This document shows, piece after piece, positions 39,567-62,033 of a stretch of 64,000 nucleotides of DNA. Origin of the DNA: Periconia sp. R9002 (lineage: Eukaryota > Ascomycota > Dothideomycetes > Pleosporales > Periconiaceae); contig JAMAHW010000040.1 in the NCBI GenBank assembly GCA_023627715.1, positions 62,001 through 126,000 on the forward strand. The letters run 5' to 3'. The position numbers were made by a program, and so were the translations under genes. The notes under the pieces were generated by a model that was given only the letters and a program-made list of their open reading frames with translations, was not told where the DNA came from and searched no databases. Position 1 is the first letter of the stretch, and each line of letters begins with the position of its first letter.

Positions 39567-40191
39567 GCTGCGATTTCGATCTGCAGTATCTGAGTACCTT
39601 GACAGAAAGAAATGTAGATTGTGTAGCGTATGCCAGATCAGATTTTCCTTGGCCTTTTCCTTTATATCTACAATGTACACATGTACCCGAGTGATTATGT
39701 TTATCGGATGCAATCGGGTGATGGTAGCTAATGGTAAGCCTATTGATCGGGATGTCGGTGGTTTGGCTCGTATTGAATTGGCGTATCGCAGCACGCGGAG
39801 CATGAGGCGTGCCATACCAAGACGTCACCACTTCTAACTGACGAACCATTCGATATGTGGCGTCAAGGCAGGTCTTGAATCCCGTGCAAACCTGCTAACA
39901 ATTCCAATACCGCGCACAATAATATTATGTAGTATTTCTTGATGATGATTACTTCTTCTGTTTCCTTTGGTCGCTTACACCCGACAAATAACGAAGCGTA
40001 CTAAGCATGCATCTATCCCGCGTCTTCAAAAATAAGCGTCTACTATATATTTACCTATGTATCTCTATGAAAGACATGTGACCGCGGACAAAGTAGGTAA
40101 AACTTCAAAGCAAGCGGGTGGTGTTACACCGACGTCCAAAGTTCATTTTGCCTTCTCCGAGCGCGGGACAGGTCACCCACGGGCGCGGTAC
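39567..40191. other. Intergenic, monooxygenase promoter
   Basis: About 625 bp between the monooxygenase start and the transporter 3' end. Frames antisense to the transporter end are not called. Confidence 0.45.
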
Positions 40192-44692: not shown

Positions 44693-45621
44693 TATTGAAA
44701 ACAAACGATACCATTGAAGTCAATCAAAAAAACAATTCTTGGATGCTGGTTTTGTCTCCAATCAAGGCCGCCTAATCATCTCATTTAACATTAACGGCCG
44801 GCAAAGAAAGGCGTACCATACGGGCACATATGTCTAATCCGGCCCGATGTACATAAATCGTACCCCACGCCTTAGGGCTAAAACGCATTACGCTGAGATA
44901 AGACATTTCCACTAGTACAGATTGCTAAATACGGTATAAGGAATGGACAGACATGTGTATATAGAATTCTGTACTTACACTGTGTACTTCAAAATTAAGT
45001 ACACATGTATTCTTACATAAATTACCTAGGTATATGTATGTACGTCACAGCTGCACGTAACAAAACTTTATACATTCTAAAATAATGTTTTTAGGATTAA
45101 AAAATCTAATGTCGATGTAGATATAGTGTATTTACGACCATTTACGGATAATAAATGGGTGGAAAGAGATAACAAAGGAGAAGAAAAGGAGCAAGAAGTA
45201 GTGAGACCATTGAAACAAAGGAGATGACATTTTTATCATTTACTACTTTAGGATTAGTACTAAGATCTTCCATAATCATGACCTGTATATACAGAAAATT
45301 ACTGGTTTGTATATTCGTATTGTACAGGTCGTACATGTACAAAGGCAATCCCTAATTTCTAATCACATTGATCTGGGCACATTTTGCTGCTATGGATGGT
45401 TATGTTTCGTTGATGGCAATATATGGGGCCACGGATTTAACGTTATTCCGGCGCAAATCCAGGAAATATCTGACCATCCTGATTGGTCAAAGTTTCAGAA
45501 AGAGACCCGCTGATATCTAAATCCGCTCCGATGGAGACATTTCTTCCGCCACCTCCGGCATGCCATTGCGCCAGCAATCAAACCTCACGCTCGTGGTACA
45601 CCCCTCTCTAAACCCGGAATT
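44693..45621. promoter_or_regulatory. Shared upstream region, transporter and regulator
   Basis: About 930 bp between the divergent PDR transporter and Zn2Cys6 regulator. It should contain both promoters. I see no clear everted CGG pair that I would assign to the regulator. A/T-rich in its middle (45000-45350). Confidence 0.5.
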
Positions 45622-47798
45622 ATGGAACAAGTCGGTAAGTTTCTTCGCTGTGTTAGGCTAGGATCTTTTGCGCGGATGAATTTGCTAAGTACTGTGCAGC
45701 GCCAGGGAAAATTACCAAAATCCCAAAAGCTTGCGAAGGTGAAAAGGGCTCAAACTCAAAATCGGCTCGAACCGGCCAGACACTGACCTGCTACTCTCCC
45801 TAGCGTGCCGCGTAAGAAAGCAAAAATGTGACGGACAGAGACCCTGTGGAACCTGCACAAAACGCGAAACTCCATGTTCTTACCGAGCCGTCACCAGGCA
45901 TCGGGGTCGGAAGCCTCTCCTCTCCACCACAGTGAGTCCTCAGGACGGCCAATTCGGGCCAACAACGGGGCAGGCGGAAGGGTCACGTGCTCAGTCCGCG
46001 GAAGACAATCCGTGCCTTCCACCGCGTGTGCACATTTTCAACAACATCCGCGCTTCGCATGAAGCATCTGGTTCGGAAACATATTACGGTGCTTCTTCTT
46101 CAGTTTCACTCCTGCTCCATATCGACAACCACCTCCATGTTCAAGCCCAACCAGCCCATGGTTCAGGTCGTAATCTCATTGAAGACCAAGATGGTACCGA
46201 AGGCATCAAGCGATACAACTACCAGAGCATTGCGTTCAACAAGCTGCCCCCACCTACGAGAAATGCAGGCTACTGCCTCTTCCTTAGCCGTGAGGCTGCC
46301 GAAGGTTTCCTACGAAACTTCCTTTTGAGTTGGATCTATCGCATCCCTTTCCTAGAACCGGAACGACTTTACACTTTATTAGACCAATTATACGGGAAGG
46401 ATGCTGGAACACCGATAACCCCGGCAGAGAAGTCCATAATCATTATTTCGCTCGCCCTCGGGGCAACAACCTCTCCAAACAGCCCTGGGCGGGAACAACT
46501 TCTTGCTCAGGCCCACGCTGAAGCAGAAACCACCATGTACGATGTCAGTCTCTGCGCCGTGCAAATCGCGCTTCTCATGGCCCAATGCGAGTTTGAAAAT
46601 GGGAACCCAAATATGTGTTACCTCCAGCTAGGAAGCGCGATCCGTAAAGCGTTTGCTTCCGGGATCCATCGCATCGATCGACCAGAAGCAAGGAAAAGCA
46701 TGTGGACGCTCTTCTGCAACGAGACGTTGATTTGTGTAAAACTCGGTCGCCAGTGTGGTTTGACAGAGGCAGATGTACCTTCCTTCGGCACCGAAGGCTT
46801 GGATTATTTCAAAGCTTTTGCGCGGTTGTGCATCATCATCAGGTCGGCGTACAATATCCACTGTCATAAGGACACAACTGTTCGCGTTGATCTTGAGCAA
46901 GCGAACTCCTTGCACGAACAAATTCAAGAGTTTTACATTCGCATCGGACAGGAATTGGATCTCAAAATTGGTGCCCCGCTTTACGCGCTAGAAGGGGAAA
47001 AACTCTTTTGGCATACAGCGATATCGTACTGTATGTTCTACTTCGGTCGCTGACTTGAAATGGCGCGCGTGATGCTGACTTGGAGCCATAGTATACTACT
47101 TCGCCATTATGCTCACATATCGGCCATTTCTCGTTCTGCATCTAGAATGCGAGCGGCGCTTTGCACTCACTGGAAACAGAGTCAATACAGTCGACTTGAG
47201 GGACGCTACCATGCGCTGTACCCAGTCGGCGCGGTCTATTATTCAGCTGTCACAATCTTTGATCTCTTTAGGCATCCGTACAGACGTATGTCATTCTTTA
47301 ATAAATCACTGCTTTCGATACCAAACGCTACGTTTCAGAACATCATCATCTCCCGTTACTGACGATTTCTAGGTTATTTGCCACAACACTTACTATCTGG
47401 AAAATGCCTGCTTTGTCTTGGTTCTGGCTGCTAGTCAGCGAGACAACTCGTCAGCAGAATACATCGATCTAGTAAAGGCAGGCCTGGAATCGTTGAAAAG
47501 GCTCCCCCAACGAGACCCCATTCCATGCATCGTATCAGCTATCGAACAAATGCTTGACAGACTTATTGTGCTATCAAGTTCTGAGTTCATGGGTTTTCCA
47601 GTATCCAGTAGTTCTACTGACGCAAGTCACAACCTCTCGAACACGGTGCCGGTTGTTTCAAATGGAGAGCCAATTGAGTCTGTCACTCATGATTTCGCTG
47701 GACTTTACCACGGAAATGATTTTGAGGAACTGTGGTCTACCATTGATTGGAATATGGCTTTTCCATCTCTGGGTCCGGATACGCTCATGACTTTGTAG
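45622..47798 (+). CDS. Zn(II)2Cys6 transcription factor
   Basis: Predicted 637 residues from exons 45622-45634, 45700-45738, 45804-47045, 47092-47285 and 47373-47798. The first three exons must be joined to see the DNA-binding domain: ACEACRVRKQKCDGQRPC, then GTCTKRETPC, which supplies all six zinc-ligand cysteines. The middle homology region follows (FLLSWIYRIPFLEPERLY, MYDVSLCAVQIALLMAQCE, LGSAIRKAFASGIHR, LFWHTAISYCMF), then YRPFLVLHLECERR. The donor at 47046 (GTCGCT) is weak but keeps frame. This architecture is a fungus-specific pathway regulator. Its divergent position suggests control of the adjacent PDR transporter; this is inference. Confidence 0.9.
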
Positions 47799-48516
47799 GA
47801 TGCGGAATCATTTGTGCGCAATATGAGCATTCTCTCCCAATTTTGTCATATACGAGTCTACGCTATCTCATCTCCTCCAAATATCCTTCAGATTCGTTTT
47901 TACGGCGATGAACAAACAGTCACTAGTCACGGGTCTGTGCCTTTTAGTGCTCACATACGTGTAATTTCGAGCGTAACCACCAACATCAGGTCTTGTGCTG
48001 CGATCGGATTCACATCACTGTCCGCGACGGCCACTTTGTTTTTCCATCGGTAGCCCTAGAAAAGTTATGTACGTGAGATGTCCAGGTGCGGCTTGAGGTG
48101 TAATAGGGTCAACATTCCTCAAAATGTATGTGAGGGGTCACGAGTGGGTTCAGGTAATCTCAGGCACATCCGGATAGTGGAGCCAGAGGGGAACGAGTCA
48201 CCATGAAACAAAAATCAAATTCCATTCACAACCTCTTGAGCGTGACGAAGCTCAACAAACAAGTGCTTAGAATGTTTGCCCTGTGAACAAGGACTAGAAC
48301 ATGAAGCTTGAGAACTAAGACTAGCGAATTGACGTTTGTATCTGAGTAGAATCTCTATTGCACTTATATATGATGAAACATCACTGTGCGTAGATATCAG
48401 GCGCGTCAAAAGTGTTGAACGAAGTCCAGAAACAGGGCAAATATGCGAATTCTTGGACTTCGCAACAGATCCATACAATGTAAGAAAGAACTGCGACTCG
48501 CTTGGCCTTTAACAGT
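47799..48516. other. Intergenic, convergent 3' ends
   Basis: About 720 bp between the regulator and the convergent tyrosinase. Nothing supported. Confidence 0.45.
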
Positions 48517-49826
48517 TTAGAGATACTCATAGCATAAAGTATCTCCCTGTATATCCATGACATCCCTGATCGTAACATTCGGCAAAATCCCTTCCACGTT
48601 AATCACGTGACCCAGTGTTGTTATGTTGGCCGGGTCGCCATCTATCTTCATCCACGGTCCATTTTGTGGAGGTGGAAATCCAGGGAAGTTGGGGAAGCCT
48701 GAAGGGTCGCCGGGAGCGCCTGGCCCTCCAGGGAAGTCAGGTAATGAGCTGCAATCTGACGCATTCCCAGGAGGGAATGGCCATGAGGGAGGGAACGTTC
48801 CATTTGGACCCCCAGGGATCGTCCCGTTGGGGCTTCCGATTGGAAAGCTTCCGTTGGCCCCACCTGGGAAGAAGAAAGTGCCTTGGTTCGGGCCCGTGAC
48901 TTCAGTGAGACGTGACGTAAGGTTTTTGGACTGCCATTGCCACCATATCTTATCTATATAAGCATGGTGCATATAAAAAAGGGGATCCCCCGGGCTGGAG
49001 AAGACGTTCATCATCTTCAGCAGTCAGCACAAAGCACTAGGTGTGTGACGGGAGACATACTTGTCCGTTGATTCCACCATGGCCAGCACTGTGCGGCAAC
49101 CCCTCGATGCAATTCCACGCTTCCTGGAACGTCTTCGCCTTCATGCAGATATCCACATTCTTCTGCGCGGCCATTCCGCTCATACATTCGTTGATTTGTC
49201 TATCAATGCAATGGTCTGTGATGCTTTCGCCAGGGCCTATCGCGTTCATGTAATTTTTGAAAGGGCCGTCGGCAATGCAGTTGTTAGGTCCAACGCCATC
49301 CCCACCAAACCCCGTTTCGGGGTCTAGCAGAATCGACTTCGAAAAGTTCCCAGCGTCCCGCGCTTCATCCCAGTAAGGCTGGGCACCGGTGTAGTTGCAT
49401 TCTGTTCGAAGGGCGGTTTCGTGGGCTTGGATGTAGTAGCGATGATAAGGAAGGAAAGCACCCTAGATGTCATGAGTCTTGGGTGGCGGTGATGTCTATA
49501 TAGAGGAGGATATACCACTCCGTGGATCAATGGCGTGTGTAGTACGTGTATTTTTTGAAAGTCGTCGAAACGTGTACGGGGACCCTTGAGGCCCAATTTT
49601 GCTGGCAGGGACATAAGGCATTTTTCAGCATCAATGTATGATTTCTTCTCATCCCTCGTTAGAGTGTTCCTAAACATAATCAATTTTCATTTGTTTTGGG
49701 TGCAGTTCTACAATATACTCACCATGCTTTCCTTTGAATTGGCGACGTGCATGCTTTCTTCTCAGCATCACGAACAGGCGCAGCATCAGCCGTGATGATG
49801 GCGAGAAGAATCCAGTTCCAATGCAT
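48517..49826 (-). CDS. Secreted tyrosinase (type-3 copper oxidase)
   Basis: Predicted 385 residues from exons 49826-49723, 49669-49516, 49462-49061 and 49014-48517. A signal peptide (MHWNWILLAIITADAAP) opens the protein. CuA ligands are His79, His84 and His93 in VLHTPLIHG..FLPYHRYYI. CuB ligands are in PHSAGHGGINGQ and FYMHHAYIDK. After the CuB site comes a roughly 70-residue Gly/Pro/Asn-rich insert with four N-glycosylation sequons (NGS, NGT, NGT, NAS), then a short conserved tail. Tyrosinases oxidise phenols to quinones in melanin or metabolite pathways; short secreted forms occur in fungal secretomes. Neighbouring monooxygenase and O-methyltransferase fit aromatic chemistry. Confidence 0.9.
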
Positions 49827-50413
49827 GTTTATACACTCAGTATGACTTTGCGATGAGCAGTGGGGATGGTTTAACTATGTAAATCATAGCGCATTGCGTT
49901 TCTGCCGAACCATGGAGAGCAAAACGCTGGTATTCGATATGAAAGTGCAAATTTCCAATACATAAGCGTTCGAGATTGCGCAGTAGACTCAAAACTACAC
50001 AGACGACATGAGGCTCAACGTTATTAGGCAGGGTTATGATCATTTTGCCACGCGCTTCAATTGGTCCCTTTGCGACTGATAATATCAGAACAATTACCCA
50101 ACTGCCGCACCCGCCTGCCACCATTCAAGAATCGCATGTTCCGATGGCGGATACATTGCCATGCGGACTACAGTTCATTTTTCGTTCATCATACAGGCAG
50201 GAACTTAGTGCATTGGCCAATATATTTAGGTATATGGCAAAACTGCTATACGTAGGGTTGATACAGTAAATAATTTCATCATTCGTTTGCAAATAAAACA
50301 ATATGGAAAAGGACTAACTAATGATACAGAGTAAAACCGAAAGTTACGTAACTTGGTGGTAGAGAAACCCTAATTTCATCAAGATTTTAAACCATCGGCA
50401 CGGCACCTCTTAC
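49827..50413. other. Intergenic
   Basis: About 590 bp holding the tyrosinase promoter. No gene supported. Confidence 0.45.
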
Positions 50414-51661
50414 TCACAATTCGAATATATTTTCGCCGTCTTCGATTTTGCACAGGGTCATCCGGAAAGTGATGCATTCGGTTCCATGTGCAAATATCTC
50501 GCCTTGAACCTCGGCCCACTCATCCTTTATAATGCTTGTACCATTAGGAATCGTGATCAAGGTTCTGATCTGGGCCCTAAGCTTCTCCAAGTTAAACTTA
50601 AGGCGTATAAGGTCGCGCACCTCCTCTGCCGTGTCATCGGGGTAGATTCTGATAGTTTGCGTCGTCTGTAGACCGTTGATTAACCCGCGCTCTTCCAATG
50701 ACGCTAATAGCTCTATTGCCCATTGACCCGTTGCTTGCGGGTTCCATTTCACAGTAACTTCACGGAACGATTTTCGGGGTGTGCATTGCTGCGCTGCCGT
50801 TCTTCGCGCCATTCCTGCACTTCGCGTCTTTTCCTTCCTCGAGCTCGTCGTCAGGGTGTTACTCGTTCCTTCAGGTCTCATCCAGTGCGGTATCATTTCA
50901 TCCGAAATCCTTTTGATGTGCCTCCGCTTGTCCCTTCCAAGCCTCGTGTCCCACATTTCTTGAGCTATTGTAGCGTGGATGTACATGATCAAGGTAAAAC
51001 ATCGGTTGTATCCTTCTAGTTCACCTTCCCCTTGTTCAGGGAACGGACCAAGACGGGGGAATTGGAATTCCGATATGTCCGTTATATGAGGAGGGGTTTT
51101 ATGTGTGAGGGCGATGAATGCCTTTTCCGCTTGGCTCTGTCTCCGCCGGGGAAGTTCCGGCTTATGGTATTGGAGATGTCGATACATCTGCACAACAGCG
51201 AGAGCCGTGCGTTGCGTGGCATGACTACCGTTTGATTGGAAAGGGTAGACAGTGATTGGGCTCTCCTTCGACCTCATTTCTTCTTCGTGGTCTCGGATGT
51301 AAGCTAGAACATCCCATTGTGGAGCATGAGAACGATGGCGGTCAGTGAAGGCATTGACGTAGCTCTGCAGCACCCACCAACTCATGGCGAAATGCTCCAA
51401 TGTGTCCCGTTCATCAAACGAGCAGTACCTGGCGACTTTCCCTTCATTGCGCCATAATCTCACGAATGTTGTTGTATCGCCAGTAATACCGGGACGGAGT
51501 TCTTCCTCATCGCGTTTGTTGACTGAGGGTGGTGTACTCTGTTTGCCCCGCGATCGAAACCCGTGACGCAGCTTCACGCGTTTATTGACTGAGATTGGTG
51601 TATTTTGCTCTGCGAGAGGGTCTGGAGAGGATGATGGGGACCGGTTCGAAAAATCCTCCAT
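50414..51661 (-). CDS. Hypothetical protein, single exon, family not recognised
   Basis: A 415-residue open frame without introns. The N-terminus is Ser/Pro-rich and contains two near-identical short repeats (TPISVNKRVKLR and TPPSVNKRDEEELR). A middle part rich in Trp, His and Arg (FAMSWWVLQSYVNAFTDRHR) looks globular. The last 90 residues (starting IRIYPDDTAEEVRDLIRLKF) alternate hydrophobic strands and a helix in a pattern reminiscent of a ubiquitin-like fold. I recognise no catalytic motif. A long clean frame with biased composition supports a real gene, but it could be lineage-specific. Confidence 0.6.
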   Translation of the reverse strand: MEDFSNRSPSSSPDPLAEQNTPISVNKRVKLRHGFRSRGKQSTPPSVNKRDEEELRPGITGDTTTFVRLWRNEGKVARYCSFDERDTLEHFAMSWWVLQSYVNAFTDRHRSHAPQWDVLAYIRDHEEEMRSKESPITVYPFQSNGSHATQRTALAVVQMYRHLQYHKPELPRRRQSQAEKAFIALTHKTPPHITDISEFQFPRLGPFPEQGEGELEGYNRCFTLIMYIHATIAQEMWDTRLGRDKRRHIKRISDEMIPHWMRPEGTSNTLTTSSRKEKTRSAGMARRTAAQQCTPRKSFREVTVKWNPQATGQWAIELLASLEERGLINGLQTTQTIRIYPDDTAEEVRDLIRLKFNLEKLRAQIRTLITIPNGTSIIKDEWAEVQGEIFAHGTECITFRMTLCKIEDGENIFEL

Positions 51662-53087
51662 AGCTATTCGTTTGCGATAGAAGGGATCACGCTACCGTTC
51701 CCCGGCAAATCTTGGACGCTCAGTACATTGCAGTTTTTTTTTTTTTTTTTTAAATTATAGCCATAGCAATAGCAAACGCGACGCGTTATGCATACGTGGG
51801 GTAACGTGCGCTAGTCCGTTCTAAGCTTAGTGAACGGCTTCAACTGCGCTAGCGCTAGAAAACATCAATTGCATATTATTGAGTTGGGCGTACAGTCGTA
51901 TCAATGAACGATTCATTCAGTTCGTTGTAGAGTAAAAGGGTTATTTATGGGTGGGATGAGAATTAAGATAATTGTCGGAACTTTTAAGCACTAGGACGAG
52001 TAGAGTCGTTCACGTGAAACTAGCGTGCTGGGCTGTCTATCGTCACACGAGGATGACTCTTTGCATAAGATTCTCTTAGACAAGGGGTATATGGAATAGT
52101 GTTCCAGAAGACAAAAAATGCATCTTAAGATCTGCTACAAGATTGCAGAAGAGTCCTACAACATGTAATCTGCTGATCAAAAATCAATTCCAACCAAGGC
52201 GGGTTTAGAAAATAGGTTCCTCTGAGAATAAATCAATGATAAGTATAGCTAGGCTTGGTAATCCTATAACACGACTAACCCGGCTTCTGCATAGTAGAAT
52301 AATATTCAGAATCTTTAGCGCCCGTTGTTGATAGCTCCAATCTCGATAGGTATGTAAGATGCATCATAATCACCGTAGAAGTTATAGCAGTGCGGCCCCG
52401 ATAGTGTTTTCTTCGTGGCAATTGATTGGTGTAATCAGTCAGGTATAAACACTGGTTTCTCTGATTTGATATATCTACGTTAATTATGATTGACGAGATG
52501 GACCAGTAACACAGAGCTGTTTGCAAAATCTATTAGCAGTCTATTCCTGAAAAGAGCGAAAAGTATAACGATCTCGTGCGATATGTAGTGTTTCCTTATT
52601 TATTTATTATTTGAATCGGTGCAGTGTTGGTCTCAGAAGTCCTGTGGTATTGTCTATTTATTTACTACGAACAATACGGTGAGCAGAAAGGAGGATTCAA
52701 TAAGGGCAATGGCAGCAAGGGAGAGGATCTATGCCGTAATGGGAAGAATATGCACGTTCTGAGACGGTTCAAACAAACCTAAGCTGACACGCTACGCCGC
52801 TACACTCGTTTCTCTCGTCGCGATAGCTGAAGATTTGAGGATAATCTCACGTCATAAGACGGCGTAGCAAAATCTAGACTCCTTCAGCTAGACATCAATT
52901 GATAAGACATGAGTCAAAAGTAAGATCGTTGAGTACGGACGAATAGCGGTGAGGTGTAGATACACTGTTCCAGTCTCGTGGCATACGGCGTAGCGGGCTC
53001 ATCGTCTTCTACACTCATTTATCAAGTCCTTCATGTACACCGGTATCTTCATCGAACAAACGATCGTCAATTCGACTTAACCACACA
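51662..53087. other. Intergenic with poly-T tract and repeated promoter motif
   Basis: About 1.4 kb between divergent genes. It has an 18-nt T run at 51734-51751, A/T-rich DNA to about 52650, and three copies of CGGCGTAGC in the 300 bp before the methyltransferase. A 83-codon frame at 52526-52275 is not called. Confidence 0.5.
52791..52994. promoter_or_regulatory. Three copies of CGGCGTAGC upstream of the O-methyltransferase
   Basis: ACGGCGTAGC occurs at 52859-52868 and 52985-52994, and the reverse complement GCTACGCCG at 52791-52799. They lie about 290, 220 and 95 bp before the ATG at 53088, in both orientations, as expected of a transcription-factor site. Binding protein unknown. Confidence 0.45.
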
Positions 53088-54376
53088 ATGAGCTACGACA
53101 GCAGCATGGAAGACCAAACCGCAGAGATAGATGTCCAAAACAAGCGTATCGCGGAAGCCCTCCGCCAGGTCCAATCTGATGGCAGCGACCTGTTGAACGG
53201 AAGCCTTGGAGCCCGCGAAAAGTTGGTATCCAGTGCGCGTAATTTGCTCAGCGCTGCAGAAACTCCAGTCGAATTCCTCCTATGGCACATATGGGCACTA
53301 CCTACACGCACGGTCGCAGCACGCATTGCCACAGATTTGAAACTGTTCGAAACTATCGCTAGAGATGGAGTGAAAACCAACGAAGAATTGGCTGCCGTCA
53401 CGGGCGCCTCACCCAAGCTGGTTCAACGAATTACCAGAATATGCGCGTCCACGAACATGTTGGACGAGAAAGAGCCAGGCGTTTACGCGGCCAACGCTCT
53501 CACGATGCTTTCAGCCCAACCCCAGTATTCCGCAGGTATCATCTTTTGTTTTGATGTTGCCCAGAAGTCGTATGCAGACATGCCAACTTATCTTCGAGAG
53601 AATCAATTCCAGAACCCAGAAAATTCAATAGATGGTCCTTTCCAGTATGCCAACAATCATGTCGGACACGCTTTTCAATGGGTTGCAGCTCGCCCAGACG
53701 TCTTCCGAGCATTTCATATGTATATGCACGCGCTACGCAGCCACCTTCCCTGCTGGACCGACATGTACCCCGTGCAGGAGCGCCTCATTGATGGATTGGC
53801 GGCGGATGGAGACGCATCAGCCTTGATAGATATTGGCGGAGGAACAGGTCAGACTTTGCAAGACTTCAAGAAGAGTGTACCATATTATACCGGCAAACTG
53901 GTACTTCAGGACCTGGACGAAGTTATCAGCGCAGCGAAAGCATTGAAGGTAGATGAGGAGAATATCGAGCTTCAAGTACATGACTTCTTCACCGAACAGC
54001 CTATCAAGGGTGCGCGAGCTTACTTCTTGCGAATGGTTTTACATGATTGGCCTGATGAGCAGTGCCGCAAAATCTTGGGGCACCTGAAAGATGCGATGAC
54101 GCCAGGCTATTCCAAACTTCTTATCAGTGAATACGTAAGTTGATGTATCCCAAATAATTGTACTTTAGAGACTGACTCTTGCGATAGGTACTTTCGGATC
54201 ACAATGCGGCATGGCAGCACCTCTCGTTGGATATATACATGTTAGCGCTCGCTTCAGCACAGGAACGTACGAAGAGCGAGTGGTACAAGCTTATTGAAAG
54301 CTGTGGCTTGGAAATTGCAGGTATCTATAGCAAAGGTGAAGGAAATGAAAGCTTGATAGAGGTTGTTTGTGGATAG
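53088..54376 (+). CDS. SAM-dependent O-methyltransferase (COMT-like)
   Basis: Predicted 411 residues from exons 53088-54134 and 54188-54376 (phase 0). An N-terminal winged-helix dimerisation part (TRTVAARIATDLKLFETI, TGASPKLVQRITRI) precedes the Rossmann methyltransferase domain. The SAM loop is LIDIGGGTGQTL, the acidic strand end LVLQDLDEV, and the general-base histidine is in MVLHDWPDEQCRKIL. The intron falls exactly at the conserved LLISEY/VLSDHNAAW junction. Such fungal enzymes methylate phenolic hydroxyls of aromatic metabolites. It could act with the monooxygenase and tyrosinase upstream, but no polyketide synthase is in the window. Confidence 0.92.
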
Positions 54377-56098
54377 AATATCTCAGAGTACAGTTAGCAC
54401 AAATCGTATCACGTCGTGAAGACTTATCCCTTGGCTTACACTTTTAGGTCAGGTTCGAGGCGCTGGCCCTTGAATTTTCATGAAGCAAAGCGTCCGGCGA
54501 GATTCCAAATAAGATGTACAATTCACCGGTCAGGATGATGCAGAGCGACGGAAATGCGGCAGGGTTATTGATTTATCGACTGACATGGTGCACTTGCGTT
54601 GTTTTTTATAAGTTTTTGCCATAGAATAAAGTTGAGAAACTTTTACACTGCTGAGAACAGTAGTCGAAACTTTCAAATATCGGCTTTTCTTTTAGAAAAA
54701 AAATGAGTCTTTTGGTACATCAACGCGCCGATAGCATCCCGCTAAAATTGGGGGCTATTACTGCCACATACAATTTTGTGTTCTTCACTCATGCCTTCTT
54801 CACTTTGGTAATACTCGAGAAATTGCCTCCCGCGGTGATTGTAGGAACACGATTATTCATAAACAAGCACCTTATGTTTCAAGCAGAATTTCGATACTTG
54901 CTGACTAATTCTTTAAGTGAATTTACTATCAACGTCACGTCCCAGGAAGACGAGCTCGCTGCCTAGCATATGCGCGTTACACAAGAAGCAACGATATGAG
55001 CACTTCTACAAATCAAATCGATCTCCGAAAAGATATTGGAATTGGTCAGTCAGCATGAATAATGTAACACCGCCCGTTGGTCAGTCAGCATGAATAATGT
55101 AACACCGCCCGGACTTAATTCATCATTTTGGTCGTGCAGGTGACCTTGCTATTTTTGTAACTTTACAAACACTTCGGGGTTCACTATCTCTACTTAAAGG
55201 AAGGGGATAATGCATCCAATCTGGTCTCCTACAGCAAGTATTTGGTTGAGGTCAGGCAAACTGTCCGTGAAATGATGTGGAGTGATATCTATATTCAAGC
55301 TTCCAGTTGTCTCTGCCTGCTGGTCTTGCCCTTATCATCCAGAGAAATGGAAGTTGTTGAATAGGGTCAATCTTCTCGAGTACAAGCTAGTGCGGGGTCC
55401 ATACTAGATCCATGTTCTTGGACAAAGTTACGTGACCAATCAATCACATTGGTTTGTGTCATTGGGCACAACTGTCACAGTCTCCAAGTTTCACAGCATT
55501 TCCAGGCTCCAGCACACTAAGTTCCTCTCGCTATAAATTTTTATTCTGCGTCATAGCCTGTATCGAAGCCTTCTGCCTCGGCATGCAGCCTTCTATTTCG
55601 TTGTGGAAAGTTTGACTTTACATTCACCCGAAAGAAATTTACCCGCGCTCAATACAGGTTGATAGATGAAACTACGATGAGATCTACGTCCACTCTTCAA
55701 AAACGCATGTCGGAATATCCAACTTTTTCCAAGAATCGAATTTTAAGTTCTGACAGCGTCGTCATGCTTGAGGACGATGAGTCCCAAGTTACACTAAACA
55801 GCAATTTGTACTCTGCTTCCGCCACAATTCAATAGCTCACACTTTGTCTTACGCTTGTCCTACATTGTTTCTCCCCCGCTCTTTTATTGTTTGCGTTGTT
55901 CCATATGTCGGCCTTTATCTCTCTCAACAACATTCTACAACCGACAATGAACAACGCCTGCCTTTGTTAAGGATTCACCACCTATAAATTAATGCTCGAA
56001 ACTTCTTCCAAACGAATCGACCAGAAAATCCTATACAATATACACCACTCCAAAACAACCGCCAAAAAAGTCAAAACAGCATATAATACTAGCACAAA
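54377..56098. other. Intergenic, contains a tandem duplication
   Basis: About 1.7 kb. An 87-codon frame at 54703-54966 has a hydrophobic start but no recognisable family. The perfect 35 bp tandem repeat is listed separately. Confidence 0.45.
55042..55111 (+). repeat. Perfect 35 bp tandem duplication
   Basis: Two adjacent identical units (55042-55076 and 55077-55111), each beginning TTGGTCAGTCAGCATGAATA. No mismatch between copies, so the duplication is recent or is an assembly artefact. Confidence 0.9.
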
Positions 56099-56614
56099 AT
56101 GAGTTCTTCTGCCAATAGAAGGGTCATTGATCCTAGTTACTACGTATCTGGCGGTTGTGAGTTCCTGATCCAGTGGACCCCGAAAGTTAGGACAGCTCGT
56201 GCCCCAGCTGCGCTAGTCAGTAGTCTTTTCTTTGCAGGACTTATCGATTACATCCCTAGTAAAGACATGTTTGGTGTAGCGGAAGACGCTGGACCGGATG
56301 CGACGGCTGACGTCCTCGAATGGATATGCCGACGTGAGGAAACTCACTTGGCCTTCAATGACCCTGAGAGTGACGATATCGCGATTTACGTAGAGTACTT
56401 GCCGGGCTGGGAGGACCCTACCAAAGACCCGGACGACTGCTTCTGCGGAGAAAAGTATGACGAAGATAAACATGTCGCCGTCTTTCTTCCTTGCGGGCAT
56501 GCGTTTGGTGAGTCGTGTTTGAAGGATTGGTTCTCTTGTGAGCAGGAAGCTAGGAACCGATGCCCTCTCTGCCGTCGGAAGCTGTTCGAAGTGGACCCAC
56601 CTGAATATGAATAA
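56099..56614 (+). CDS. RING-finger protein, probable E3 ligase
   Basis: Single-exon protein of 171 residues. The C-terminal RING uses C114 and C116 (CFC), C132, H134, C140 and the CPLC pair C155/C158, within LPCGHAFGESCLKDWF and NRCPLCRRK. The first ligand pair is CxC rather than CxxC, and the position usually holding a second His or Cys is Gly, as in a group of fungal small RING proteins. The N-terminal 110 residues carry no known domain. Likely role: ubiquitin transfer; target unknown. Confidence 0.8.
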   Translation: MSSSANRRVIDPSYYVSGGCEFLIQWTPKVRTARAPAALVSSLFFAGLIDYIPSKDMFGVAEDAGPDATADVLEWICRREETHLAFNDPESDDIAIYVEYLPGWEDPTKDPDDCFCGEKYDEDKHVAVFLPCGHAFGESCLKDWFSCEQEARNRCPLCRRKLFEVDPPEYE

Positions 56615-57648
56615 AATCAACACTCAAAAGCAGTGAATGATTTGTCGTTTCAGTATGTCTCGTCTGTCGCGTACTACGATGGACTTACGAGATTCGTTTT
56701 TGCCCCTCCGGGTGATTTGTTCCTCGGAGTCAACCAAAGAAATTTTGCATGCAGGACATGCTTAAGCAATTGACAGTTTAAATACATATTCATTTTAACC
56801 TAGTCCAATTTTCTCAATAAATCCAATTCATGCTTGGCTTTGATGATGTTACTACACCATGTTCACAGCTCAATGTGCTTATCAAATCTTGTATGGAAAA
56901 GGTTAAGAGACACAGCTATGGCGTATAGGTGAACAGTTAGATGCAATTATAATCACGCGTTGTTAGCGTCGTATCATTCATTTTATTATATTACGCGGGC
57001 AAGCAGGCCATACTATTGAAACTCTAAACTGCTATGACTTCACATTAACTTTGTTTGATTACGTGATTCATGCTCGGGTGTGGCGGCATGGTTGATTCCC
57101 GCGATTGGGCCTCGATTCGCCAGCCGAGGTTCGTTCTGCACTCCTACCCAAAGTCCTGATTCTCGCGCTCGGTGTTCAAAAGACCCGAGAGATATGTAGC
57201 TGAGTTTTCAATGCAACATAAAATAGTAATAGACTGCAAGGTAATGGTTTGTAAGATTTGACGACATCACAATAGATTTAATTTAACCTTAATGCGCATC
57301 TTTTGCTTCTTTGAGATATAAAAGTCCTGGAAGTACGCATGGAGGATCCTCTGCTGTTGTGTTTTCGGCTTTACGTAAAACAGCGAAAATGGCGGGTTCG
57401 CAACATTCAAACTGATGAATACGCAAACACGTAATCCTGTACCCTCTAGCGAATTGTGCACGAAAATATATTTGTTCAAAATCAAACTTGTTGGTCTGTG
57501 CTAATCGCCGTTTGATAAGAGCATGTCGCGTACAGGATCTCAAATTTGGTGTAGGCCCATTGCAAATCGTTTCAGATTGTTCAAAACTCTTGCGTGAGTG
57601 TAAGCCCGTTGAAATCAGTCTTTTCACATAAGTTTCGCATCCTAAACT
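56615..57648. other. Intergenic
   Basis: About 1 kb. Overlapping frames at 57267-57627 upstream of the kinase stop have no motif. No tRNA found. Confidence 0.45.
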
Positions 57649-58350
57649 TCACTCCAACCCACCACCTATCCTTAAACTCTTCCCTAACTTCATAGCAGCC
57701 TTTTTTGCCATACCCTCCACATCCTCCGTACGACTTCCCTCATTCTCATCCCTTCCAATCTCAAATGCCTCAATATCCGCTTCCCTAAACGCCATTACAA
57801 TCTCCTCCTTCTGCTTCTCATACTCCTTCACCCTCTTCTGAAACACCTCCTCCGAATCCATAGCATCCCTGCCCCGACCTAAGACGCGTGCTTGCGCAAC
57901 TAATGGATTGCATTCAATTACCAGGAGCAAAGCCTTGATACTGCCCTCTGTATCGGGATCTTCAGACTCTGACTTCAGATTCCAACGCCCTTTCCTCACC
58001 TCAAAGAACTGCCGGAACTGCGCTGCAGTGCGAGGAAATCCATCGACCAGGACCCTCATGTCACCTCCTCTTTCCCCATTACCAAATATCCTACTATCTA
58101 GAAACTTGTTCATGATGTGCTCAGGCACGAGTTCAGAATTTCCGAGGTGTTGCTTTATTGTTAAGACTTCAGCTTCAGTAAGGTTCGAGCTGGAGGCAGA
58201 ACTGTTCTTCGCTAAGGCGCGAAGTTCGTTCCCGACAGCGATATGGGTGAAGTTGTAAGTTTGGTTTAGACAGGTGCATAGTGTCGTTTTTCCTGCTCCC
58301 GGAGGACCGAGGACGAAGACTAAGATTTTTGTTGGTGGCGAGGAATCCAT
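57649..58350 (-). CDS. Nucleoside monophosphate kinase (adenylate/UMP-CMP kinase family)
   Basis: Single-exon protein of 233 residues. The P-loop is GPPGAGKTT (residues 15-23). The NMP-binding region has VGNELRALAKN where the family usually has GDLLR, and LVDGFPRTAAQF (from residue 102) is the diagnostic DGFPR motif. A short lid (ARVLGRGRDAMDSEEVFQKR) contains the Arg pair that binds phosphate. Such kinases make NDPs from NMP and ATP; adenylate and UMP/CMP specificities cannot be separated by eye. It is transcribed divergently from the viperin gene with 518 bp between starts, suggesting shared control. It is a different fold family from vertebrate CMPK2. Confidence 0.9.
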   Translation of the reverse strand: MDSSPPTKILVFVLGPPGAGKTTLCTCLNQTYNFTHIAVGNELRALAKNSSASSSNLTEAEVLTIKQHLGNSELVPEHIMNKFLDSRIFGNGERGGDMRVLVDGFPRTAAQFRQFFEVRKGRWNLKSESEDPDTEGSIKALLLVIECNPLVAQARVLGRGRDAMDSEEVFQKRVKEYEKQKEEIVMAFREADIEAFEIGRDENEGSRTEDVEGMAKKAAMKLGKSLRIGGGLE

Positions 58351-58868
58351 TTGGGGTATTCAAACAGTGCTTTCCAATTATAAATTCGAGGTAGTTGTGG
58401 AGCATACCGATACCTACAAGGGGGATTTTATAGAGGACCTAGTGATTGCTTGGAAGTTTGTAGCTGTTTGCTAAAGTGAGCGGACGACCCAGTCACCAGA
58501 TGTAGTCATTTCATACCTATGTAGGTACAGGCCCTCATAGACTAATCAATCCCCCTAGAGCATCAATACACAGCCATCCTTATTTCGCACGTGAACGAAG
58601 GCTTCAGCTTATGACAAACGACTGCCTTAACTACAGATGCTCTGAGAAGCATTACAATTTGTACATGATTTTCAAGGCTTGTCATTCTTTTCAGGCAGCC
58701 TCAACCCACTGGTTGCATTTCACTTTGCCTATTGATTGCTACGTCGATCATAGAAACTAATCATTTGATTGCGTCAAACCCAAGCTCGCATATATAAATA
58801 CAGAATCTACAGGGTTTACATTTTTCTTCACCTCACCGATCGACTTCTGTCTTGAGTATTGAAATAAA
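58351..58868. promoter_or_regulatory. Putative bidirectional promoter, NMP kinase and viperin
   Basis: 518 bp between two divergent starts. It holds a clear TATA element for the viperin side (58791-58800) and the palindrome-like ACCTATGTAGGT near 58516. No clear TATA is seen for the kinase side. Confidence 0.55.
58791..58800 (+). promoter_or_regulatory. TATA box of the viperin gene
   Basis: TATATAAATA, 69 bp before the ATG at 58869. Strong TATA elements are typical of inducible fungal genes. Confidence 0.6.
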
Positions 58869-59990
58869 ATGACGAGTTTCACTAGCCTTACGGTTCCAAC
58901 GGCCTTCACGTATCCTAATGCTACAATCCTGTCAATTATCGCTATCTTAGGCTCTGGAGCGTACCTCTACATCCAGCATTTCAGAAAGTCTTTCAGCAAG
59001 AAGACCGTCCCCGTATCTGTCAACTATCATTTTTCGCGCAAATGCAATGCCGACTGCGTATTCTGTTTTCATACAGCGAAGACTAGCCACGTAGCTCAAG
59101 ACGAAGACGTCAGGAGAGCACTCCAGCTCTTAAAACACGAAGGCATGAGAAAACTAAATTTCGCGGGTGGAGAGCCGTTCCTGTACCCTGCCAAGCTCGG
59201 CCCGTGGTGTCAATTTGCGAAGGAAGAGTTGAAGCTCGAAAGCGTGAGCATCGTCTCAAACGGTACGAGGGTCAGGGAGAGTTGGCTTCGTAAGTGGGGC
59301 CAGTACATTGATATTCTTGCTATCAGCTGTGATTCATTTGATCCGGATACAAATAAAAAGATTGGTCGTGCGGAACGCGGTTCAGGCAAGCCTTTCGATA
59401 ACGTCAAACAACTCTTCCAGATCCGTGACTGGTGTCTGGAGCTAAACATCAAATTCAAGTTGAACACGGTCATCAACCAGCTAAACTGGCAGGACGATAT
59501 GAGGGATACAGTGAAGGATTTGGCTCCATTTAGATGGAAAGTCTTCCAGGTGCTCGTCGTTGACGGAGAGAACAATGATGAGGACAAGTTGAGGGATGCC
59601 CGGAAAGTTACTATCACAGATGATCAGTTTAAGTTCTTTTGCGACCGGCATCAGCACATTCAGGGTTTTACTCCGGAAGACAACAATGCTATGAGGGCAA
59701 CCTATCTGGTAAGTGTCCTAGCTCAGCGGCGTTCCTACTATTAACATCGCATTAAGATCTTGGACGAATACCTGCGTTTTCTGTCACCAGGGAATGGTGC
59801 TAGAACCGTATCAAAACCAGTGTTGGAAGTTGGAGTGCAGCGAGCGCTAGCTCAGATATACTGGGACAGGGAGGGTTTCCAGATGCGAGGAGGAGAATAT
59901 GATTGGAGTAAAAACGCCCCGGGTGGTAGAGATGGTGTTGGTTGCGAGGGTGGAATATCAGGCGTCAATTCAAAAGATTTAGAGTTCTAG
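58869..59990 (+). CDS. RSAD2-like: Viperin-like radical SAM enzyme
   Basis: Predicted 357 residues (vertebrate viperin is about 360) from exons 58869-59708 and 59757-59990, phase 0. A hydrophobic N-terminal segment (residues 17-36) would anchor it to a membrane. The iron-sulfur cluster ligands are C59, C63 and C66 in SRKCNADCVFCFHTAKTS, the exact viperin form including FCFHTAKTS. Further viperin-specific blocks are NFAGGEPFL, VSIVSNGT, LAISCDSFD, FKLNTVIN, RWKVFQ and, across the intron, YLILDEYLRFL. Viperins convert CTP (or other NTPs in some homologues) to 3'-deoxy-3',4'-didehydro nucleotides that terminate viral RNA synthesis. The C-terminus carries a 20-residue Gly-rich insert before the final KDLEF. 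Nucleotide preference here is unknown. Confidence 0.95.
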
Positions 59991-60384
59991 GAAATTGGGG
60001 AAGTCTTCACTGGAGAACGAGACGAGTGTTGTAGTGAAAGATGATGTCTGAAGAATCTTGCTCCTCGTTTGCCTTACTCTGATAGGTGGTATTCACCGAG
60101 CTAATGATTAACCTTTCCTAGTTTAGACTAGCTTTTGTTTGCTGTAAGCTGCACCTAGGTAAAGTGCTTTCGCTACTTCATTGTAATTTCAGTTCAACCC
60201 TACATTTTTTCCCACTGCGTACAACCCACGGTCCTGCAAAAAGACATACCGTCTTCACCATTGCGAAATAAAACAACATTCGTAATAAATCTGTCGTTTG
60301 CATCTGGGTAGCTAAGTTCCACCGCATGACACAATCTCTTCCGAGAGACATTCGGGAGCCTTCACTCAACCTACTATACGCAAA
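59991..60384. other. Intergenic, CYTH gene promoter
   Basis: About 390 bp between two genes in tandem. Nothing supported beyond the expected promoter. Confidence 0.45.
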
Positions 60385-61056
60385 ATGCTTCCAAGGCTCC
60401 CTCTCACAGCGAAGGCGCTCAAAACTACATTAGAAGTCGAGCGCAAATTCCGACCAACGCTGCAATCCCTCACGCATCTCCGCGCAAACGACGGCGAACG
60501 ACCCTTCACCATTCACCGACCACTTGGAATCAGCATGCAGAATGACGTTTACTATGACCGAGGCGGCGAGCTCATGAAGCGCGGCATCTACGTTCGTCTT
60601 CGAAACGGCAAATGGGAGGCGAAAGTACGATCGGGCGGTGATTACCTCAACTCCCAATTCACCGAATACAGCGAGCGCGAGCAAATCGACGAGTTGCTGC
60701 GTAGCGTCTCAGCAGATAGAGGGGATATCTTCAGCTTTCACCCCTCCAACCTCTCAGTCGTCGCCCAATTTATTACAAAACGCGAATCGTGGGATCTGGA
60801 CGGCTTCAGGGTTGTGGTAGATGAAGCGGATTTTGGTCATACAGTTGGTGAAGTTGAGCTTTGCCAGACGTTCGACACAGACACCATCGGAGCTCATTCA
60901 CATGGCGAAGAAGGCATTGCAACCGCTGGGAAGCGAATGGATGACAAGATTGATGCATTTATGGATAAGTACCGTTGGGCCTTTCCTGTAAGCAGTGATC
61001 AGGTTGTCGGCAAACTCTCGGCATACTTCAGTTGGAAGAAAGGTATGGAGAAATAG
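60385..61056 (+). CDS. CYTH-domain triphosphatase (thiamine-triphosphatase-like)
   Basis: Single-exon protein of 223 residues. The CYTH signature ExExK is E17-V-E19-R-K21 in TTLEVERKF. It is followed by NDVYYDRGGELMKRGIYVRL and KWEAKVRSGGDY, the basic strands that line the triphosphate tunnel, and by the late acidic strand GEVELCQTF. CYTH enzymes bind inorganic or organic triphosphates with a divalent metal; the eukaryotic subgroup closest by eye is thiamine triphosphatase. It is directly downstream of the viperin gene on the same strand (395 bp gap). Whether it acts on thiamine triphosphate or another triphosphate is not visible. Confidence 0.88.
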   Translation: MLPRLPLTAKALKTTLEVERKFRPTLQSLTHLRANDGERPFTIHRPLGISMQNDVYYDRGGELMKRGIYVRLRNGKWEAKVRSGGDYLNSQFTEYSEREQIDELLRSVSADRGDIFSFHPSNLSVVAQFITKRESWDLDGFRVVVDEADFGHTVGEVELCQTFDTDTIGAHSHGEEGIATAGKRMDDKIDAFMDKYRWAFPVSSDQVVGKLSAYFSWKKGMEK

Positions 61057-62033
61057 AAGCAGCCGAACGGGGGAACAAGATGATCATTTGATGAAAAGGC
61101 TGGAGGGAGAGTTATGGAACCAGGGTAAGGAGACATCGACGAATACATACCTCCGATTGAACAGGTATTTTGGCTAGGGTGACGATTAGTGTCCTGGGAC
61201 AGAAATATCACAGACTAAGTTATCCAGCCGCCTTCAGCACCCCAATTCACTAGGGGGACTAACTTTCTGCCTTGCAAGGTGAATGTTAGAACGAAAATGA
61301 ATACGGATGGCACGTAGGTACAAGAGACAAGTTCCAATATTGCACAGTGATGGAAGAGTGCATTGCAAAGGAAAATTTAGATACATTACGAATGATCTCC
61401 TTTCTTCTGTTTTTCTGGAACACACGACCCCAGCGTATCTCTCTGTCAAACACCTTGATCGTAGAGTCGAGTAAAGAATCCAGCTTGTCTGCAATGGCAT
61501 CATTTTATTTGACCTCACTAATCTCACACGATTTGTGCGCGCGATGTATTCAGAGCATTAAATTAGACTTACATCCCATGATCGGGTACGTTCAATCTGT
61601 CTGGATCGCTTTTCTATTGTCTAGAACTTGGGACGTCGAATGCTTCACGGTGCTGTGTGTGTGACAAGGGTATGCTAAGTCTTAATAATACTGGAGGATG
61701 TAGTAGATGTAACAGGGGTATGTCGCCTCGGCTCGCTGTCTTTCGCAGCTCATAAAACCTAACGCCGAGCATGCCACCTGTAAACATATTAGCACCAGGT
61801 CTTAATAATCTGCTGGAGAACTCCACGGGTCGAATCTGCAGCAAACCACGGATATGTCATCAAACACGGTCCTCGGATCTTCGGAACCCCTAACTAGTGA
61901 GCATCCAGAAGCGGGTACTATAAAATAAACGTCTCTACACTCGCATGACCATCTCATCGGCCTCAAGACACATTCTCATAAAGAAAATAATTATTTGGCC
62001 TCAGTGTGAAAAACTCTACAAATATTCTTCCCC
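61057..62033. other. Intergenic
   Basis: About 980 bp. No supported gene; a 105-codon frame at 61347-61664 has no domain. The downstream end holds the promoter of the VOC gene. Confidence 0.45.
61919..61925 (+). promoter_or_regulatory. TATA box of the VOC gene
   Basis: TATAAAA, 109 bp before the ATG at 62034. Confidence 0.5.

What the first reader, a model, noticed from the sequence alone, without database searches (positions are those of the whole stretch)
57649..61056. Fungal viperin gene paired with an NMP kinase and a CYTH triphosphatase
Seen: a viperin homologue with CNADCVFCFHTAKTS and the other family blocks, divergent from a nucleoside monophosphate kinase (518 bp apart), followed in tandem by a CYTH-fold protein. 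Known: viperin makes ddhCTP, a chain terminator of viral RNA polymerases, and in vertebrates it sits beside the nucleotide kinase CMPK2. Inference: this may be a fungal mycovirus-defence module in which the kinase feeds the NTP substrate (or salvages the product) and the CYTH enzyme binds or limits the modified triphosphate. The kinase is of a different family from CMPK2, so the pairing would be convergent.
Basis: partly seen in the sequence, partly recalled or inferred. Interest (0 to 1): 0.92.

Follow-up and report, generated by a model that had tools for sequence, protein, structure and literature searches.

The report
Fungal viperin, kinase and CYTH module
A fungal genome carries the antiviral enzyme viperin at three places, each time back to back with an unusual nucleotide kinase and at two of them beside a predicted triphosphate-cutting enzyme, which looks like a repeatedly kept toolkit for making and controlling chain-terminating nucleotides.

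Summary
At 57649-61056 lie three intact genes: an adenylate-kinase-family NMP kinase (minus strand); a viperin (plus strand, one intron) starting 518 bp away, head to head; and a CYTH gene 394 bp downstream. The linkage is unlikely to be chance. The same genome has three viperins (49-59% identical pairwise). All three are head to head with a kinase (256-533 bp between starts). Only two CYTH genes were found genome-wide, both beside a viperin. Flanks differ. Hits on contigs of identical length put viperin and CYTH together in five other Pleosporales genera, with the kinase too in Lophiotrema. The kinases group apart (100/99) from housekeeping UMP-CMP and adenylate kinases, with a long-branch caution. 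The CYTH proteins fold like thiamine triphosphatase but carry Tyr where it has Trp-53, credited with thiamine-triphosphate specificity. Best reading: a nucleotide-analogue module in which the kinase feeds pyrimidine nucleotides, viperin makes ddhNTP, and the CYTH enzyme limits or processes the triphosphate. Viperin-kinase pairing is a known kind (CMPK2; bacterial pVip with kinase). The kinase family and CYTH partner are the new part, as far as I could see. Antiviral function is unproven; a nucleoside natural-product cluster is the main rival.

The parts
57649..58350 (-). NMP kinase of the adenylate-kinase family (PF00406), short-lid form, 233 aa
58351..58868 (.). 518-bp intergenic region between the two start codons (possible bidirectional promoter; no 6- to 9-mer shared by all three loci above shuffles)
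58869..59990 (+). viperin (radical SAM nucleotide dehydratase family), 357 aa, exons 58869-59708 and 59757-59990; N-terminal hydrophobic stretch, C-terminal tripeptide LEF
59709..59756 (+). predicted 48-bp viperin intron
60385..61056 (+). CYTH / triphosphate tunnel protein, 223 aa, ExExK motif kept, Trp-53 of thiamine triphosphatase replaced by Tyr-69; short basic N-terminal extension without acidic residues

Best explanation
This is a viperin-centred nucleotide-analogue module. Shown: an intact viperin-family gene, an NMP kinase of a distinct group head to head with it, and a CYTH gene beside it; the kinase arrangement recurs at all three viperins of this genome, the CYTH at two, and viperin and CYTH share contigs in other Pleosporales. 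Inferred: the kinase turns CMP/UMP into the diphosphate and so raises the CTP/UTP pool (by analogy with CMPK2). Viperin, on a cytosolic membrane, dehydrates CTP or UTP to ddhCTP/ddhUTP, which ends viral RNA chains. The CYTH enzyme hydrolyses triphosphates that reach it, most likely ddhNTP, and so limits damage to the cell's own polymerases. Likelihoods: functional linkage about 0.95; viperin makes a pyrimidine ddhNTP about 0.9; kinase feeds the substrate about 0.6; CYTH acts on ddhNTP or another product of the module about 0.4; purpose is defence against RNA mycoviruses about 0.55.
For: Own genome: three viperins; ADK-family genes at 6 loci (9 matches), 3 of them head to head with the three viperins, the other three being a Ura6-type kinase (C20) and two long-lid adenylate kinases (C167, C54); CYTH at 2 loci, both beside a viperin. 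Start-to-start distances 518, 533 and 256 bp. Flanking genes looked at differ. Other species: five viperin/CYTH pairs, each from one named species, on contigs of identical length among 120 x 120 listed hits, and no unequal pair over 20 kb within 20 bases; the Lophiotrema kinase P0124 has that contig length too. All five are Pleosporales. The kinases group together, 100/99, in a 15-row tree. All 3 own viperins end in the [LIM][DES][WF] tripeptide (LEF, LEW, LDW), as do 88 of 120 hits (motif from PMC10623007, passages), and all 3 have an N-terminal hydrophobic stretch. [quoted passage not shown] eukaryotic viperins are said to use CTP or UTP (PMC11249213, passages). CMPK2 lies inverted beside RSAD2 and raises ddhCTP (PMC10058120, passages).
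Against: No expression or activity data. The C2 locus has no CYTH match at 42001-62000 of that contig, so CYTH is optional. Of 10 named Pleosporales in the viperin list only 5 have a CYTH among the 120 listed of 497, and Apiospora arundinis has viperin and CYTH on contigs of different length (possibly different assemblies). Most listed CYTH hits come from sources with no viperin in the listed 120 of 1931, which is not a test of absence. Same contig is not yet adjacency. One viperin-contig CYTH (Clohesyomyces, a partial record) differs at two acidic positions and one (Lojkania) at another. The kinase scores far below the UMP-CMP kinase model cut-off (80.2 against 207.6), its nucleobase cannot be read from sequence, and the tree call warned that long branches may mislead. 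No promoter motif is shared by the three loci. The window also holds secondary-metabolism-type genes, which favours the natural-product rival.
Confidence: 0.6

Rival explanations
1. A nucleoside-analogue natural-product mini-cluster: the kinase prepares the nucleotide, viperin makes ddhNTP, and the CYTH triphosphatase begins to strip phosphates so that a ddh-nucleoside can leave the cell, as in cordycepin-type pathways (recalled; such papers were seen only in a search listing). The target would be competitors, not viruses.
For: The window holds a non-ribosomal peptide synthetase, ABC transporters, a Zn2Cys6 regulator, an FAD enzyme and an O-methyltransferase. The C2 locus has a short-chain dehydrogenase next to the kinase, which would suit a pathway. 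PMC9642334 reports the earlier idea that a fungal viperin makes antiviral natural products.
Against: Among the flanking frames I looked at I saw no gene other than the kinase shared by all three loci; this was not a systematic comparison. The three viperins keep the C-terminal tripeptide known as a cytosolic Fe-S delivery signal and a hydrophobic N-terminus, in the manner of the animal enzyme.
Confidence: 0.2
2. Kinase and CYTH are both recyclers. CYTH or polymerases release ddhNDP/ddhNMP and the kinase rephosphorylates the analogue, so the pair sets the ddhNTP level rather than the precursor supply.
For: At the NMP site the residue before the conserved Gly is Ala in the UMP-CMP kinases aligned and Val or Ile in these kinases, and the lid is shortened, as might fit an altered sugar. 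A Ura6-type kinase is already present at C20, so precursor supply alone needs no extra enzyme.
Against: No biochemical data; the CMPK2 precedent favours supply.
Confidence: 0.15
3. Chance adjacency, or simple co-duplication of one ancestral block without function.
For: The three loci are paralogous, so they are not independent observations; the predicted kinase genes of C204 and C2 share an intron position inside the P-loop.
Against: Kinases are only 31-35% identical between loci while head-to-head order persists and flanks differ. CYTH is tandem to viperin at C40 but tail to tail at C204. The CYTHs on viperin contigs do not form one clade (AU p 4e-5, group named after a first tree had been seen). 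Viperin and CYTH share contigs in five other genera.
Confidence: 0.05

Closest known systems
Vertebrate RSAD2/CMPK2 pair
   Same: Viperin inverted beside a nucleotide kinase; [quoted passage not shown]
   Different: CMPK2 is of the thymidylate-kinase family (recalled; a separate bacterial origin per PMC11249213, passages); here the kinase is PF00406, adenylate/UMP-kinase type. The passages I saw mention no CYTH partner.
Prokaryotic viperins with adjacent or fused kinases (pVip; PADLOC models)
   Same: Viperin family plus a CMPK2-like kinase neighbour in 15% of bacterial viperin genes (PMC11249213); PADLOC has models for viperins associated with kinases and for viperin-kinase fusions
   Different: In 18 prokaryotic loci examined I identified 2 kinase neighbours, both thymidylate-kinase type, and 0 of 18 gave an ADK-type or CYTH match in the flanks held, some of which are short
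Characterised fungal viperins (Thielavia terrestris TtRSAD2; PDB viperin-like enzymes, one of which I recall as Trichoderma virens)
   Same: Same enzyme family, close sequence to the PDB entries; TtRSAD2 makes ddh-CTP and ddh-UTP (PMC9642334)
   Different: In the text I saw they are treated as lone enzymes, without genomic partners
Mammalian thiamine triphosphatase (THTPA)
   Same: Best structural match of the CYTH model (3bhd, E 2.3e-12, TM 0.68/0.73); ExExK and the positions of Tyr-39 and Lys-65 kept
   Different: Trp-53, credited with ThTP stacking (PMC8615392, passages), is Tyr in 7 of 7 CYTHs beside or on a contig with viperin. The same review says no specific ThTPase has been identified in fungi.
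Plant TTM1/TTM2 (uridine kinase + CYTH)
   Same: A nucleotide-type kinase domain paired with a CYTH domain; involved in pathogen resistance (TTM1) and leaf senescence (TTM2) (PMC8615392, passages)
   Different: Fused proteins, another kinase family, no viperin

Membership tests
Viperin / SAND (RSAD2) | Family profile and CxxxCxxC cluster motif | tested here: met
   NF038283 210.8 bits (cut-off 180); CNADCVFC; the model TIGR04278 gives 304 against 450, from exon 1 only
Viperin / SAND (RSAD2) | Full-length conserved C-terminal region and CIA targeting tripeptide | tested here: met
   Match runs to residue 334 of 357; C-termini LEF/LEW/LDW in the three paralogues; motif from PMC10623007 (passages)
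Viperin / SAND (RSAD2) | Production of a 3'-deoxy-3',4'-didehydro NTP | not testable with these tools
   needs an assay
Adenylate-kinase family NMP kinase (PF00406) | Profile above cut-off; P-loop, DGFPR and lid arginines; fold | tested here: met
   71.9 against 26.8; invariant residues; Foldseek best hit human UMP-CMP kinase 7e9v, E 1.6e-11, AK1 close behind
UMP-CMP kinase (Ura6/CMPK1) proper | TIGR01359 score over cut-off; position inside the UMP-CMP group | tested here: not met
   80.2 against 207.6; separate group at 100/99 in a 15-row tree with a long-branch warning
CMPK2 (thymidylate-kinase family) | PF02223 match | tested here: not met
   Not among the 13 Pfam families hit at E 0.01
CYTH / triphosphate tunnel metalloenzyme | PF01928 profile, ExExK motif, tunnel fold | tested here: met
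   41.0 against 23.2; E17/E19/K21; model pLDDT 88.6 matching THTPA
Thiamine triphosphatase (THTPA) | Trp-53 for ThTP specificity | tested here: not met
   Tyr-69 in the window protein; Tyr in 85, Trp in 35, gap in 2 of 122 sequences aligned
Kinase-associated prokaryotic viperin system | CMPK2-like (thymidylate-type) kinase beside viperin | tested here: not met
   Kinase is PF00406; PADLOC gives no match for it at E 0.001

The most novel reading that the evidence does not exclude
The Tyr-type CYTH proteins are a dedicated ddhNTP triphosphatase, the self-protection arm of fungal viperin immunity. They carry a basic N-terminal extension, mostly without acidic residues, that resembles a mitochondrial presequence (median 35 residues with 6 K/R in 74 Tyr-type proteins, 13 with 2 in 34 Trp-type; the Tyr set is dominated by relatives of the C204 copy, and the window copy's extension is only 16 residues). 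So they may clear ddhNTP from mitochondria. There the single-subunit, T7-like RNA polymerase (recalled) would be the host enzyme most at risk, since viperin chemistry is reported to inhibit T7 RNA polymerase in E. coli (PMC9642334).
Probability: 0.18. Interest if true: 0.9.

Novelty: new variant of a known kind. Interest (0 to 1): 0.7.

Why it matters
Viperin is one of the best examples of immunity shared by bacteria, archaea and animals, and partner genes tell how cells feed and tame it. A fungal viperin that recruited a different kinase family would suggest that the enzyme-kinase partnership was reached more than once. A triphosphatase partner would be the first hint I know of for how a cell protects itself from its own chain terminator (recalled knowledge; Shomar et al. 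2024, which treats eukaryotic viperin partners, was not readable here). Both are directly testable with three small proteins.

Tried and rejected
Shared promoter motifs: the three viperin-kinase intergenic regions share no 6- to 9-mer above shuffles; pairwise, C40 and C2 share one 10-mer where 0.23 is expected, which I do not count. Viral relatives: one scan of viral contigs with the viperin alignment found none. Fusion proteins: none of the 120 listed viperin hits shows a kinase or CYTH domain, within the length limit of that search. PHROGs gave only general matches for kinase and viperin. A simple thiamine-triphosphatase reading of the CYTH gene was set aside because Trp-53 is lost, though ThTP hydrolysis is not excluded. 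A P-loop/HAD/UPRTase fusion gene near the C2 kinase was considered as a fourth part, but six UPRTase loci exist in the genome, so it may be chance.

Contamination of the small C204 contig was considered, because its CYTH is 75% identical to a protein of Cudoniella, a Leotiomycete. The stretch L019:3200-6800 has 43 other matches in the assembly, one of them 89% over 1.9 kb at the start of the 406-kb contig C30. GC of the first 10 kb of C204 is 0.45-0.56 per 2.5 kb, against 0.44-0.50 at C2 and 0.38-0.49 in the window. So it probably belongs to this genome; transfer of that CYTH between fungi remains possible. Independent recruitment of CYTH at C40 and C204 cannot be claimed: the linked ones are not one clade (AU p 4e-5 for 7 rows, 0.002 for 10 rows, groups named after the first tree), but untested members of the Tyr-type group may also lie beside viperins.

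Rows used: kinase tree 15 rows that I chose; viperin tree 47 of 123; CYTH trees 37 and then 28 of 122, nine rows being dropped for the second. Papers not held: Shomar 2024, Bernheim 2021, Lachowicz 2021. Paper searches, judged by listed titles and starts of abstracts, showed no report of a fungal viperin-kinase or viperin-CYTH pairing in the open library. This is not proof that none is in print, and I recall that Shomar et al. report linkage of eukaryotic viperins with nucleotide kinases.
Full report
The three genes are real and intact. The kinase (57649-58350, minus) is an uninterrupted 233-codon frame with the adenylate-kinase domain. The viperin (58869-59708 and 59757-59990, plus) needs one predicted 48-bp intron to join its body to the C-terminal block YLILDEYLRFL...GGEYDWSK. 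The CYTH gene (60385-61056, plus) is a single frame. Kinase and viperin start 518 bp apart, head to head; CYTH starts 394 bp after the viperin stop.

Is the neighbourhood meaningful? The window's own 42.9-Mb genome gave the answer. It holds three viperins: C40 (the window), C204 and C2, 49-59% identical to one another. It holds six ADK-family loci (nine matches, some of them exons of one gene). Three look like housekeeping genes: a Ura6-like kinase on C20 and two long-lid adenylate kinases on C167 and C54. The other three are the genes head to head with the three viperins. It holds two detectable CYTH genes, both beside a viperin; a profile scan of 20 kb around the C2 viperin found none there. 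Start-codon distances are 518, 533 and 256 bp. The flanking genes I looked at differ. At C40 they are a RING finger, a glyoxalase and an amidohydrolase. At C204 there is a gene region with TPR repeats and a sub-threshold PNP_UDP match (21.2 bits against 25.1). At C2 there is a short-chain dehydrogenase and a P-loop/HAD/UPRTase fusion. So what recurs is the module, not a large duplicated block. Random placement would give 3 of 3 kinases with probability about 2e-10 and 2 of 3 CYTH with about 1e-7, with the caution that the loci are paralogous and not independent.

Is it seen outside this genome? I had no other fungal genome to search, so I used contig length as a fingerprint. Among 120 listed viperin hits (of 1931) and 120 listed CYTH hits (of 497), exactly five pairs share a contig length, and each pair carries one species name: Lophiotrema nucula (1,262,772), Lojkania enalia (257,596), Lindgomyces ingoldianus (625,144), Lentithecium fluviatile (2,221,947) and Clohesyomyces aquaticus (537,484). 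No two unequal lengths over 20 kb come within 20 bases of each other; eight near-misses exist among short contigs. All five species are Pleosporales. Against this: five other Pleosporales in the viperin list (Corynespora, Bimuria, Massarina, Byssothecium, Trematosphaeria) have no CYTH among those listed, and none of the ten but Lophiotrema has a kinase among the nine hits. Apiospora arundinis has viperin and CYTH on contigs of different length, perhaps from different assemblies. Same contig does not prove adjacency.

What the kinase is. Six sequences (three from this genome, P0123, Lophiotrema P0124 and Diatrype P0125) group together at 100/99, apart from UMP-CMP kinases and AK1, in a tree of 15 rows that I chose; the program warned that long branches may join falsely. 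The C2 kinase pairs with that of Diatrype, a Sordariomycete (99/99), so the group may span two classes. P-loop, DGFPR and lid arginines are kept. The residue before the NMP-site glycine is Val or Ile where the UMP-CMP kinases aligned have Ala and AK1 has Thr; the lid is shortened; and the residue four after the arginine of DGFPR is Gln, as in yeast Ura6. The predicted fold (pLDDT 83.4) is nearest human UMP-CMP kinase, with AK1 almost as near. The base it prefers therefore cannot be read off. Pyrimidine is the better guess because eukaryotic viperins are said to use CTP or UTP (PMC11249213, passages). It is not of the thymidylate-kinase family of the two kinase neighbours identified beside prokaryotic viperins.

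What the CYTH protein is. Its model (pLDDT 88.6) matches human and mouse thiamine triphosphatase best. [quoted passage not shown] Of 122 sequences aligned, 85 have Tyr, 35 Trp and 2 a gap. In a 28-row tree the Trp- and Tyr-bearing proteins separate at 99/97, apart from one Tyr-bearing sequence (Endocarpon) in the Trp group. All 7 CYTHs beside viperin or on a contig of the same length are Tyr-type; Clohesyomyces differs at two acidic positions and Lojkania at one. The C204 copy groups with Leotiomycete-type proteins (75% to Cudoniella) and the window copy with Pleosporales, and the linked copies are not one clade (AU p 4e-5). Either the association is old in the Tyr-type group or it arose or moved more than once. 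Tyr-type proteins carry longer basic N-terminal extensions than Trp-type ones (median 35 against 13 residues and 6 against 2 K/R, median 0 acidic in both; 74 and 34 proteins); the window copy's is 16 residues.

Comparison with prokaryotes. A scan of GTDB genomes with the fungal viperin alignment returned 28 loci. Eighteen (L036-L053) score as viperins at 4e-20 or better, five of them with shortened flanks. None of the 28 gave an ADK-type or CYTH match at E 1. Two have a thymidylate-kinase-type neighbour (L038, L044), near the 15% quoted in PMC11249213. The other P-loop-like frames of the 18 gave no NMP-kinase match. The scan is not exhaustive, and a kinase missed by my P-loop pattern is possible.

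How it most likely works. Viperin family membership is firm, and a fungal relative makes ddh-pyrimidine triphosphates (PMC9642334). A hydrophobic N-terminus and the C-terminal Fe-S delivery tripeptide are present in all three paralogues. By analogy with CMPK2, which lies inverted beside RSAD2 and raises ddhCTP (PMC10058120, passages), the kinase supplies pyrimidine nucleotides. The CYTH enzyme, lacking the thiamine-stacking residue, is inferred to act on the module's own triphosphate. These last steps are inference. The natural-product reading stays open because the window also holds an NRPS, ABC transporters, a Zn2Cys6 regulator and tailoring-type enzymes.

Verdict. The viperin-kinase pairing is a known kind of system; the kinase family and the CYTH partner make this a new variant. 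Whether eukaryotic-viperin papers I could not open already list these fungal neighbours is unknown.

Noticed in passing
L018 9210-9503 and L019 576-1457 (contig C204): About 3.6 kb from the C204 kinase lies a gene region with TPR repeats and a sub-threshold PNP_UDP match; NLR-like by eye, no NB-ARC hit obtained.
   Followed up: partly
L020 9053-10000 and L022 1-1176 (contig C2, minus strand): A P-loop/HAD/UPRTase fusion frame of 707 aa (pyrimidine salvage type), next but one to the C2 kinase; six UPRTase loci in the genome.
   Followed up: partly
L019 4860-6800: Near the end of contig C204 a repeat 89% like the start of contig C30 (406 kb); the region searched has 43 other matches, mostly on small contigs. 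No TTAGGG repeats in C204.
   Followed up: partly
L049 2396-3670 and L053 4827-6122: In two related Treponema loci a gene with HD and HD_assoc domains (dNTP triphosphohydrolase type, recalled) lies tail to tail with viperin, about 20 bp away; not found at L046 or L047. A possible parallel to a triphosphatase partner, or just a lineage neighbour.
   Followed up: partly
window 3-7067 (-): Large non-ribosomal peptide synthetase frame (3 condensation, 2 AMP-binding stretches) at the window start.
   Followed up: no
window 38598-54140: FAD-binding, PDR-type ABC transporter, Zn2Cys6 regulator and O-methyltransferase frames: secondary-metabolism flavour upstream of the module.
   Followed up: no
L020 6577-6644 and L018 4955-5012: Predicted kinase introns of C2 and C204 fall at one place inside the P-loop (after LG); the window kinase lacks it, and the C2 donor site GTCCGG is unusual.
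   Followed up: partly
window 55042-55111: Perfect 35-bp direct duplication upstream of a RING-finger frame at 56099-56611.
   Followed up: no
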